NCBI RefSeq assembly: GCF_001307315.1
Contig: NZ_LGUC01000001.1
Coordinates: 496,001-560,000 of the forward strand
Source of the DNA: Halolamina pelagica
GTDB taxonomy: Archaea; Halobacteriota; Halobacteria; Halobacteriales; Haloferacaceae
Length of the DNA stretch: 64,000 nucleotides
Direction: 5' to 3'
Part shown: piece by piece, positions 9,731 to 30,029 of the stretch
Position numbering within the stretch: the stretch's first letter is position 1
How the letters are laid out: every line of letters starts with the position of its first letter
The notes under the pieces: model-generated
Seen by the model: only the letters and a program-made list of their open reading frames with translations
What the model was told of the DNA's origin: nothing
Databases searched by the model: none
Translations under genes and position numbers: made by a program

Positions 9731-9811
9731 CCGGCCGGCGTTCGACACGCGGGGACAAAACGGCAACGCCGTGGCTCTCGGACGTGAACAACGGAGAAAC
9801 GATTTGGGTCT

Positions 9812-9882
9812 ACACGATCACGGCGTGGGCTCCCTCGCCGTGACACGGAGGCCACGGCAGGTCGCTCGCCGTGATCGGTGTT
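9812..9882. repeat. Nested palindromic repeat, copy A1
   Basis: The outer arms GATCACGGCG (9816-9825) and CGCCGTGATC (9867-9876) are perfect inverted repeats about 40 bp apart. The interior contains a second shorter inverted pair (gccgtg/cacggc). The element is followed directly by a second copy with a different arm sequence. Related copies lie at about 28560-28731 and 29906-29968. It sits in the gap between the small membrane protein and rpl15e and holds no open frame. Confidence 0.7.
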
Positions 9883-9951
9883 ACACAGTCACGGCATCGG
9901 TTCGTTGGCGACGACACGGCGGTCGTCGCAGCTCACGAGCCGTGACTGGCG
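9883..9951. repeat. Nested palindromic repeat, copy A2, abutting the rpl15e stop
   Basis: The outer arms CAGTCACGGC (9886-9895) and GCCGTGACTG (9939-9948) pair perfectly, and inside them GCGACGAC (9908-9915) and GTCGTCGC (9922-9929) form a second perfect stem around a 6-nt loop. The right arm ends three bases before the rpl15e stop codon (9952-9954), so the element begins exactly where translation of the ribosomal gene ends and would be transcribed as the start of its 3' UTR. The inner stem is identical to that of copy D1 at 28581-28602 in inverted orientation. Confidence 0.75.
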
Positions 9952-10542
9952 TTACTTCCCGCCGCGGTTGCCCGACGCGATACTCGGTCGGACCTTCTCG
10001 GCACCCTTGCCGCGGGTGCGGAGTCCACGGTTGGACTTGCCGGCGTTCGTGAGGCCGCGGAACGCGCGGCCGGTCTGAGAGTCGTCGCAGATCCAGTTGA
10101 GATCGTCGTCGTTCTGGATCGCGGCGTGTTCGGGGTCCACGAGGATCGCCTCGAACCACTTCTGGGAGCCGTCCTCACCGACCCAGTAGGAGTTCATGAC
10201 CCGGAGGTTCGGGTACTTGCGCGTCGCGCGCTCCTCGGCGATCCGCTGGATCGAGGTCCGGCGGCCGAGGCGGTTGACGCCCTGGCGCTTCGAGCGGCGG
10301 CCGGCCTTGTGTCGGCGCTTGCGCGCGCCGCCCTTGCGGACGGCGATACGGACGACGACGATGCCCTGCTTCGCCTTGTAGCCCAGTTCGCGGGCCTTGT
10401 CCAGTCGGGTCGGGCGCTCGACGCGCTCGATGGCGCCCTGATTGCGCCACTCCTGTTTTCGCTGCCACTGCAGCTCGGCGAGCTTGCCGTCGCCGGGCTG
10501 CTTCCACGCGTCCTTGATGTGGGAGTAGAAGCTTCGTGCCAT
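9952..10542 (-). CDS. rpl15e: 50S ribosomal protein L15e
   Basis: A 196-residue ribosomal protein of the large subunit, starting at the ATG at 10542 with [16 protein letters not shown], the standard L15e opening. It is rich in Arg/Lys for rRNA contact, with conserved [34 protein letters not shown] and the tail [13 protein letters not shown]. Length and sequence match archaeal L15e end to end. Upstream on its strand, double hairpins at 10581-10614 separate it from the pfkB-type gene, so it is probably monocistronic. A structured repeat abuts its stop codon. Confidence 0.97.
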
Positions 10543-10580
10543 GGTTCTGTGCGGGCGCTTGCGATTCAGTCGGGGATGTC

Positions 10581-10614
10581 GGCGGCTCCGCCGCCTTTCG
10601 GGGCGCGTGCCCCG
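10581..10614 (-). terminator. Tandem hairpins between PfkB-kinase gene and rpl15e
   Basis: Two perfect hairpins lie back to back: GGCGGC-tcc-GCCGCC (10581-10595) and CGGGGC-gcgt-GCCCCG (10599-10614). They are in the 182 bp gap downstream of the kinase stop and upstream of the rpl15e start. They could end the kinase transcript or shape the rpl15e leader. Assignment as a terminator is an inference; no long U-tract follows on the minus strand. Confidence 0.3.
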
Positions 10615-10724
10615 TCCGACCACATTTCGTCCCGAGCTATCGGGTGCCCACTGGCGTCCCGTCGACCAGCGAGTTAGTCCGGAATATTCGTGATTCGGTG
10701 GTAAGGGTTTCGAAGCGCCCCGAC

Positions 10725-28518: not shown

Positions 28519-28559
28519 TCACTCGGGGTTGGGCGTCGCCGCGTAAAAGGGTGGTCCGC

Positions 28560-28731
28560 GCCGATCACGGCGCGTGAGCTGCGACGACCGCCGTGTCGTC
28601 GCCGACGAACTCATGCCGTGAGCGTGCAAGTCGAAACCGCCCACGCCGATCACGGCGCGTGAGCTACGACGACCGCCGTGTCGTCGCCGACGAACCCATG
28701 CCGTGATCGTGCAAGCCGAAACCGCCCACGC
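28560..28731. repeat. Nested palindromic repeat, tandem copies D1 and D2 (86 bp period)
   Basis: Two near-identical 86 bp units lie in the 286 bp gap downstream of eif1A. D1: left arm gatcacggc (28563-28571), inner perfect stem GCGACGAC (28581-28588)/GTCGTCGC (28595-28602), right arm gccgtgagc (28615-28623). D2: perfect outer arms CGATCACGGC (28647-28656) and GCCGTGATCG (28700-28709), with a one-base-shorter inner stem. The interior matches copy A2 near rpl15e in reverse orientation. The rest of 28519-28804 contains no gene that I can support. Confidence 0.75.
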
Positions 28732-29889: not shown

Positions 29890-29905
29890 CGGGGTCGCTC
29901 ACGCA

Positions 29906-29968
29906 CAGCCACGGCATCGGCTCCGGGCGGCCGACTCGAAGTCGGCCGCCGGTCACGCGCCGTGGCTG
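29906..29968. repeat. Nested palindromic repeat, copy C
   Basis: Outer arms CAGCCACGGC (29906-29915) and GCCGTGGCTG (29959-29968) are perfect inverted repeats; inside, GGCGGCCGACT (29926-29936) and AGTCGGCCGCC (29940-29950) form an 11-bp perfect stem with a 3-nt loop. Compared with copy A2 both outer arms differ by one paired position (AGTC versus AGCC, with GACT versus GGCT), so pairing is preserved. It lies 16 bp after the lipoprotein stop and about 60 bp from the convergent tyrS stop. Confidence 0.7.
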
Positions 29969-30029
29969 GCTATACCCGCTGCTCACGCCTCGCTCCGCTC
30001 AGCGTTCGCGTAGCGAGGCGGTTTGCCGC

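What the first reader, a model, noticed from the sequence alone, without database searches (positions are those of the whole stretch)
9812..9951. Nested palindromic repeat pair abutting the rpl15e stop codon
Two different copies lie side by side (A1 arms GATCACGGCG/CGCCGTGATC; A2 arms CAGTCACGGC/GCCGTGACTG with an inner perfect stem GCGACGAC/GTCGTCGC). A2 ends three bases from the rpl15e stop, so it would form the very start of the 3' UTR. Together with copies C and D the arm sequences change in a compensatory way (ATC/GAT, GTC/GAC, GCC/GGC next to a constant ACGGC/GCCGT core), which argues for selection on the fold, RNA or cruciform, rather than on the sequence. Seen directly: arms and inner stems. 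Inference: a mobile or regulatory 3' element (terminator, mRNA stabiliser or MITE-like unit).
Basis: partly seen in the sequence, partly recalled or inferred. Interest (0 to 1): 0.78.

Follow-up and report, generated by a model that had tools for sequence, protein, structure and literature searches.

The report
RNA hairpins docked on stop codons
Halolamina, a genus of salt-loving archaea, carries 20 to 101 copies per genome of a repeated hairpin sequence that most often starts directly behind a gene's stop codon and likely folds in the messenger RNA, where it would protect or set the message's 3' end.

Summary
The two palindromes behind rpl15e belong to a ~70-nt two-stem repeat family: 20 to 101 model matches in each of 7 Halolamina genomes, against 1-2 matches in 3 of 386 genomes of other haloarchaeal genera. 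Both stems covary strongly, also in an alignment not fitted to the model. Of 110 arrays in three species, 67 begin 0-2 nt behind a coding stop, in the gene's sense direction. Where the distance is 0, the stop codon's third base can pair with the element's far end in 33 of 35 aligned units. A tandem G-A motif and tolerance of G-U over A-C pairs point to RNA of the sense strand. Positions are often shared between species: 26 of 40 own arrays have a counterpart. The stems turn over by paired changes. No target-site duplication was found, no REP-type transposase in this genome and no Rfam family over the element. Best reading: a structured 3'-UTR element, likely guarding or setting mRNA 3' ends; function untested. 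New variant of a known kind (repeated extragenic palindromes).

The parts
9879..9955 (-).
   Evidence: CM 90.2 bits, E 1.3e-17
9808..9884 (-).
   Evidence: CM 88.7 bits
9952..9954 (-). Stop codon (TAA) of rpl15e
   Evidence: translation; Pfam PF00827
9952..10542 (-). rpl15e (ribosomal protein L15e), the gene the array follows
28555..28631 (+). Further unit (copy in a two-unit array)
28640..28716 (+). Further unit (second of the same array)
29899..29975 (-). Further unit, single copy

Best explanation
These are members of a Halolamina-wide family of repeated two-stem sequences, most of them set directly behind stop codons, which likely fold in the mRNA as the first thing in the 3' UTR and would cap the translated message by blocking decay from the 3' end or fixing where that end lies. 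Shown by calls: the family, its covarying two-stem fold, its place and direction, and that at distance 0 the third base of the stop codon can pair with the far end of the element. Inferred: that it is transcribed, that the folded RNA of the sense strand is what selection sees (supported by G-U over A-C bias and a conserved tandem G-A motif), and that its work is 3'-end protection or definition rather than readthrough, since the element follows the stop at 0, 1 or 2 nt and so keeps no reading frame. How copies reach new stop codons is not known.
For: 79 CM matches at E <= 1 in this genome, 70 at E <= 0.01. Covariation: A2, 60 own units, score 0.560 vs 0.190 shuffled; A3, 98 matches in two other species not used to build the model (but fitted to it), 0.592 vs 0.196; A4, 41 stop-abutting units of those species aligned by MAFFT alone, 0.617 vs 0.205 and <= 0.145 slid. 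67 of 110 arrays start 0-2 nt behind a coding stop in sense direction (0: 38, 1: 15, 2: 14); only 4 of 110 have an antisense coding stop within 10 nt of their other end. Third base of the stop against column 74 at distance 0: paired in 23 of 23 units of A4 (TAA A-U 14, TAG G-C 3 and G-U 5, TGA A-U 1) and in 33 of 35 over A2 and A3, where the model does not pair these columns. Sense-strand signs: pair 6-74 has G-U 25 against A-C 2 over A2 and A3 (my sum of the rows), pair 21-55 U-G 29 against C-A 3, all 21 model pairs G-U 123 against A-C 67; tandem GA/GA in 124 of 155 distinct units plus GA/AA in 9. Positions kept: 26 of 40 own arrays have a counterpart in G003 and/or G005, one of them by a weak 94-nt match; the three other named Halolamina rpl15e loci (H. 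rubra, H. pelagica, H. salifodinae) have it behind rpl15e. In 32 orthologous unit pairs, 123 of 255 P2 pairs changed on both sides and stayed paired, 12 changed on one side, 1 broken. Of 30 host genes scanned, 26 have a Pfam match, mostly ordinary core genes: MCM, PCNA, MutL, ATP synthase subunit, aconitase, superoxide dismutase, pyrophosphatase, eIF6. Background: in Haloferax volcanii hairpins lie just upstream of 503 3' ends and one tested hairpin ended 59% of transcripts (passages of PMC7237163); conserved processing sites cluster at haloarchaeal start and stop codons (abstract and passages of PMC8303175).
Against: No expression data exist here. In the two long stems alone the strand bias is modest (G-U 83 against A-C 53); in the unfitted alignment it is 29 against 15 over 21 pairs. 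The predicted RNA fold is more stable on the sense strand in only 102 of 178 units, and the antisense of the rpl15e array folds nearly as well. Pairing of columns 6 and 74 is not special to stop codons: later units of arrays also have it in 33 of 38, so the stop base may simply have been fitted into an existing helix; a cruder count gave 22 of 35 at distance 0 (it took the last GTG, which is the wrong one where the end reads GTGTG). 43 of 110 arrays are not at 0-2 nt: 20 have no upstream coding stop above my score cut-off and others sit elsewhere. In G003 I found no counterpart of the rpl15e array. T runs and neighbour orientation do not mark these genes as transcript ends more than others. 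Tandem units often have decayed 5' arms.
Confidence: 0.55

Rival explanations
1. A selfish REP- or MITE-like DNA repeat: the hairpin is needed as folded DNA for copying or recombination, and the stop-codon position only reflects where insertions do least harm.
For: Multicopy, tandem, and species differ in which sites are filled. By eye: behind mutL the element follows mutL's own stop in G000 and G006, it follows the stop of the convergent neighbour in G003 and G004, G002 has only what looks like a remnant on the neighbour's side, G001 and G005 have none; the diphosphomevalonate decarboxylase-like gene has it in 3 of 7 genomes. In bacteria GTAG-tagged REPs often supply the stop codon of flanking ORFs (passage of PMC3733652).
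Against: No target-site duplication (59 arrays, mean match 3.37 of 8 against 3.51 shuffled). No Y1 transposase in this genome or in G001, which has 20 matches at 97% completeness. Harm avoidance alone would not put 67 of 110 arrays within a 3-nt window behind the stop. G-U tolerance over A-C at pairs 21-55 and 6-74 is not expected of double-stranded DNA.
Confidence: 0.25
2. A transcription terminator or RNA-processing signal: the hairpin array itself stops RNA polymerase or marks a cleavage site, replacing the usual T-run terminator.
For: Hairpins can terminate in H. volcanii (PMC7237163 passages). 93 of 110 arrays lack a T4 run within 80 nt.
Against: T-run frequency equals that behind control genes (17 of 110 vs 30 of 174), and behind rpl15e in H. 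rubra, H. salifodinae and H. pelagica a T-rich stretch follows the element, as behind rpl15e of other genera. Downstream neighbours are not more often convergent (17 of 67 vs 49 of 137, distances measured slightly differently in the two groups). A terminator needs no 0-2 nt spacing to the stop codon.
Confidence: 0.2
3. Pairing is kept by a mutational process (template switching that copies one arm onto the other) and not by selection on a folded molecule.
For: P2 stems of orthologous units are almost as different as those of unrelated units (mean 3.86 vs 4.26 of 8 mismatches), with few one-sided changes (12 against 123 two-sided in P2; 27 against 39 in P1).
Against: The same outcome is expected at saturation under strict pairing. 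Arm copying does not explain the conserved G-A/G-A mismatch, the common loop, the nearly invariant CC and GTG ends, or the G-U over A-C bias.
Confidence: 0.1

Closest known systems
REP elements (GTAG/CGTC-tagged repetitive extragenic palindromes), PMC3733652
   Same: Many dispersed palindromic copies between genes, hypothesised roles in mRNA stability and termination (abstract start); GTAG REPs often supply a stop codon to flanking ORFs (passage).
   Different: Here the unit is ~70 nt with two covarying stems and a tandem G-A internal motif, has no GTAG or CGTC tag at its ends, lies in one orientation behind stop codons in most arrays, is practically confined to one archaeal genus, and this genome has no Y1 transposase match.
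Hairpins upstream of RNA 3' ends in Haloferax volcanii (PMC7237163, passages seen)
   Same: Hairpins in haloarchaeal 3' regions, one shown to end 59% of transcripts in a reporter.
   Different: Those are predicted structures found by clustering, and the one tested came from a coding region; the passages I saw describe no dispersed repeat family tied to stop codons.
[quoted passage not shown]
   Same: Short, non-coding, terminal inverted repeats, multicopy.
   Different: No target-site duplication found, many positions shared between species, covarying rather than fixed terminal repeats.
eL15-Euryarchaeota leader (Rfam RF03144)
   Same: A structured RNA of the same gene (rpl15e), matched at 10558-10644.
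   Different: It sits before the gene and is a separate family; no Rfam model matches the 3' element above threshold.

Membership tests
REP (GTAG/CGTC class) | Terminal GTAG or CGTC tag on the palindrome | tested here: not met
   Unit ends are CC at the 5' side and GTG at the 3' side in the unfitted alignment; GTAG appears only where the sequence happens to read G-TAG-CC at a stop.
REP (GTAG/CGTC class) | REP-associated Y1 tyrosine transposase in the genome | tested here: not met
   PF01797: 0 matches in this genome (about 80% complete) and 0 in G001; 5 of 7 Halolamina genomes have some, not tracking element number.
MITE | Terminal inverted repeats | tested here: met
   P1 arms.
MITE | Target-site duplication | tested here: not met
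   59 of 110 arrays were usable: mean 3.37 matches of 8 against 3.51 +- 0.11 shuffled; 31 single-unit arrays 3.32 against 3.48.
Known Rfam family | Match above a gathering score | tested here: not met
   Only RF03144 in the whole window, not over the element; best sub-threshold match 13.9 bits against 50 needed.
T-run intrinsic terminator | Hairpin followed by a run of T | tested here: not met
   T4+ within 80 nt behind 17 of 110 arrays, 30 of 174 controls.
mRNA 3' stabiliser hairpin | Present in the transcript and lengthening mRNA life | not testable with these tools
   No RNA data for Halolamina were available.

The most novel reading that the evidence does not exclude
A new class of archaeal regulatory RNA: a 3' hairpin that takes the third base of the stop codon as its closing base, so that translation termination and refolding of the 3' UTR are one linked event, and whose copies arise at stop codons by a mechanism that finds the end of a reading frame.
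Probability: 0.25. Interest if true: 0.88.

Novelty: new variant of a known kind. Interest (0 to 1): 0.68.

Why it matters
Few structured 3'-UTR elements of archaea are known to me. This one comes with dozens of natural copies per genome, seven genomes, filled and empty orthologous sites and compensatory mutants made by evolution, so its role in mRNA decay, 3'-end formation or termination of translation can be tested directly. The docking on stop codons, with the codon's third base able to close the helix, is not explained by any mechanism I know of for spreading repeats.

Tried and rejected
Pseudoknot between loop CTCCGT and downstream ACGGAG: the sequences match in many units but do not covary (score 0.104 against 0.097 shuffled). 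Target-site duplication including the stop codon: looked real in single cases (e.g. own-genome 314837 and 298441), rejected by shuffling. Convergent-gene enrichment: none. Kink-turn: the G-A pairs are flanked by paired bases on both sides without the three-base bulge (judged from the alignment; kink-turn anatomy recalled). Readthrough signal: spacing 0, 1 and 2 nt keeps no frame. Integron attC site: considered from memory only; no integrase was searched for. Homogenisation between copies of one genome: identical P2 arms are hardly commoner within a genome (29 of 3807 pairs, some of them pieces of one array) than between genomes at unrelated sites (45 of 7672).

Limits of the counts. Matches per genome are lower bounds, since 119 or 150 candidates were scored. 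For the array work I kept 68 of the 79 own matches, 56 of the 62 of G003 and 61 of the 70 of G005; the dropped rows were mostly partial or weak pieces inside arrays, with a few weak lone matches. Coding stops come from my own codon-usage score trained on 43 ORFs of the window, not from an annotation. Orthologues are reciprocal best blastn matches of 900 nt upstream among fetched arrays only. Seven of the 185 units were left out of length-restricted counts, and one search used the 32 pairs for which both units were in the alignments. In one search a second count kept only 115 units with well-paired P1; I do not rely on it, because that filter favours G-U. The 30 genes scanned are those of 40 own arrays with a usable upstream ORF and were cut to 400 aa.

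Full report
Where it is. The window is G000:C1:496001-560000 of a 2,972,542-base, three-contig genome. That size equals the 2,972,542 bp reported for Halolamina pelagica CDK2 (abstract of PMC5331504), and rpl15e is nearest to Halolamina rubra, H. pelagica and H. salifodinae (99, 97, 95%; the next genus 87%), so the genus is Halolamina; the strain name is an inference from size.

The observation. In the sense of rpl15e the order is: stop TAA, two bases, then unit 1 (from CC at 9949-9948 downward) and unit 2 in tandem.

The unit. Nineteen own-genome units picked by coordinates show: CC, a ten-pair stem P1 with a constant core CACGGC/GCCGTG and variable outer bases, a short internal part, an eight-pair stem P2 of free sequence, a loop most often CTCCGT (71 of 155 distinct units), and the end GTG. 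Between the stems two flanking pairs (21-55 and 24-52) covary around a tandem G-A/G-A (124 of 155 units, plus 9 GA/AA). P1 and P2 covary in the first set (score 0.428 against 0.183). With the middle pairs added, the score is 0.560 against 0.190 in 60 own-genome units, 0.592 against 0.196 in 98 matches from two other species, and 0.617 against 0.205 in 41 stop-abutting units of those species aligned without the model (slid controls at most 0.145). The proposed pseudoknot failed.

The family. The model R1 finds 79 matches at E <= 1 here. At E <= 0.01 the seven Halolamina genomes G000-G006 have 70, 20, 59, 67, 101, 70 and 65 matches, and 33 genomes of other genera have one in all, at E 0.0099. 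Over the order, 392 genomes in 95 genera, 9 genomes match at E <= 1e-4: six Halolamina and three others with one or two matches (stricter filters, 12 candidates scored per genome). Among 80 named rpl15e loci only the three Halolamina ones have the element behind the gene; in the 77 others no match is better than E 0.028.

Place and direction. In three genomes (G000, G003, G005) I examined 185 units in 110 arrays. 67 of the 110 begin 0-2 nt behind a coding stop in the same direction (26 of 40, 20 of 34, 21 of 36), 74 lie between -3 and +4, and 20 have no upstream coding stop by my score. With 3,485 coding sequences in 2.97 Mb (PMC5331504 abstract) such three-base windows make up about 0.2% of strand positions (arithmetic), so chance is excluded. 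Only 4 of 110 have an antisense coding stop within 10 nt of the other end.

The stop codon and the helix. In the unfitted alignment the base before CC pairs with the base behind GTG in 41 of 41 units. Where the distance is 0 that base is the stop codon's third base: TAA with U 14 times, TAG with C 3 and with U 5 times, TGA with U once (23 of 23). In the model alignments, where these columns are not paired by the model, it is 21 of 21 in the two other species and 12 of 14 in the own genome. The same pair forms in 33 of 38 later units of arrays, so it belongs to the element and the stop base takes part in it. A first, cruder count gave 22 of 35, because it took the last GTG where the end reads GTGTG.

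RNA or DNA. Under selection on double-stranded DNA, G-U and A-C cells (the two faces of one mutation) should be equal. They are 123 to 67 over 155 distinct units and 21 pairs, 29 to 3 at pair 21-55, but only 83 to 53 in P1 plus P2; 25 to 2 at pair 6-74 (sum over); 29 to 15 in the unfitted set. Together with the G-A/G-A motif this favours folded RNA of the sense strand; folding energies favour sense only weakly (102 of 178).

Evolution. 26 of 40 own arrays have an orthologous array in G003 and/or G005, one by a weak match; the rpl15e array has one in G005 and none found in G003. At 32 such unit pairs the gene flanks are 70-96% identical while the units are on average 72% identical (random paralogues 66%). 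P2 shows 119 unchanged pairs, 123 changed on both sides and still paired, 12 changed on one side, 1 broken; P1 shows 244, 39, 27 and 2. So the place is often kept, and the stem letters run free under a pairing rule. Sites are also gained or lost: at mutL the element follows mutL's own stop in G000 and G006 and the convergent neighbour's stop in G003 and G004, G002 has what looks like a remnant, G001 and G005 have none; behind the diphosphomevalonate decarboxylase-like gene it is present in G000, G002 and G004 only (read by eye). There is no target-site duplication.

Function. Of 30 host genes scanned 26 have Pfam matches, spread over ordinary core functions, so a single regulated pathway is unlikely. 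Frame is not kept (0, 1, 2 nt), which speaks against readthrough. T runs and neighbour direction do not set these genes apart. What remains is a general role at the end of the message. I commit to a 3'-UTR structure that guards or defines the mRNA 3' end; zero spacing would leave no bare RNA between the last ribosome and the hairpin (inference). Haloarchaeal precedents are hairpins at 3' ends, one of which terminates (PMC7237163 passages), and conserved processing sites near stop codons (PMC8303175 abstract and passages).

Novelty. Searches for haloarchaeal palindromic repeats, Halolamina, intergenic repeats with stop codons, REP in haloarchaea and structured RNA candidates showed, among the papers listed, no title or abstract start that describes this family. 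Only part of the hits was listed (e.g. 15 of 91 for Halolamina), and only open-licence papers are held.

Noticed in passing
window 10558-10644 (-): Rfam RF03144, eL15-Euryarchaeota leader, in front of rpl15e (41.7 bits): this gene has a known structured RNA before it as well as the new element behind it.
   Followed up: no
window 28555-28716 (+): This two-unit array has no coding stop before it by my score; it appears to lie in front of a minus-strand gene start, and the place is shared with G003 and G005. One unit has the same P2 hairpin as the first rpl15e unit.
   Followed up: partly
L244 (G006, mutL site): The P2 hairpin appears with the loop reversed (ACGGAG instead of CTCCGT), as if the hairpin had been inverted inside the unit.
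   Followed up: no
L261:1425-1610: A tandem array of similar anatomy in a genome of another genus of the same family, overlapping the end of a gene; no clear second locus in that genome. Possibly a relative or a transferred copy.
   Followed up: partly
L014, L015, L016, L021 (own-genome tandem arrays): In these tandem arrays the units away from the stop have a decayed 5' P1 arm while the 3' arm stays intact, and in L014, L015 and L016 such odd units are repeated almost exactly.
   Followed up: no
P1 columns 9-11 of the units in A2 and A3: The three variable arm bases are mostly AGC, GAT, AGT or GAC (104 of 155); mixed forms are rarer.
   Followed up: no
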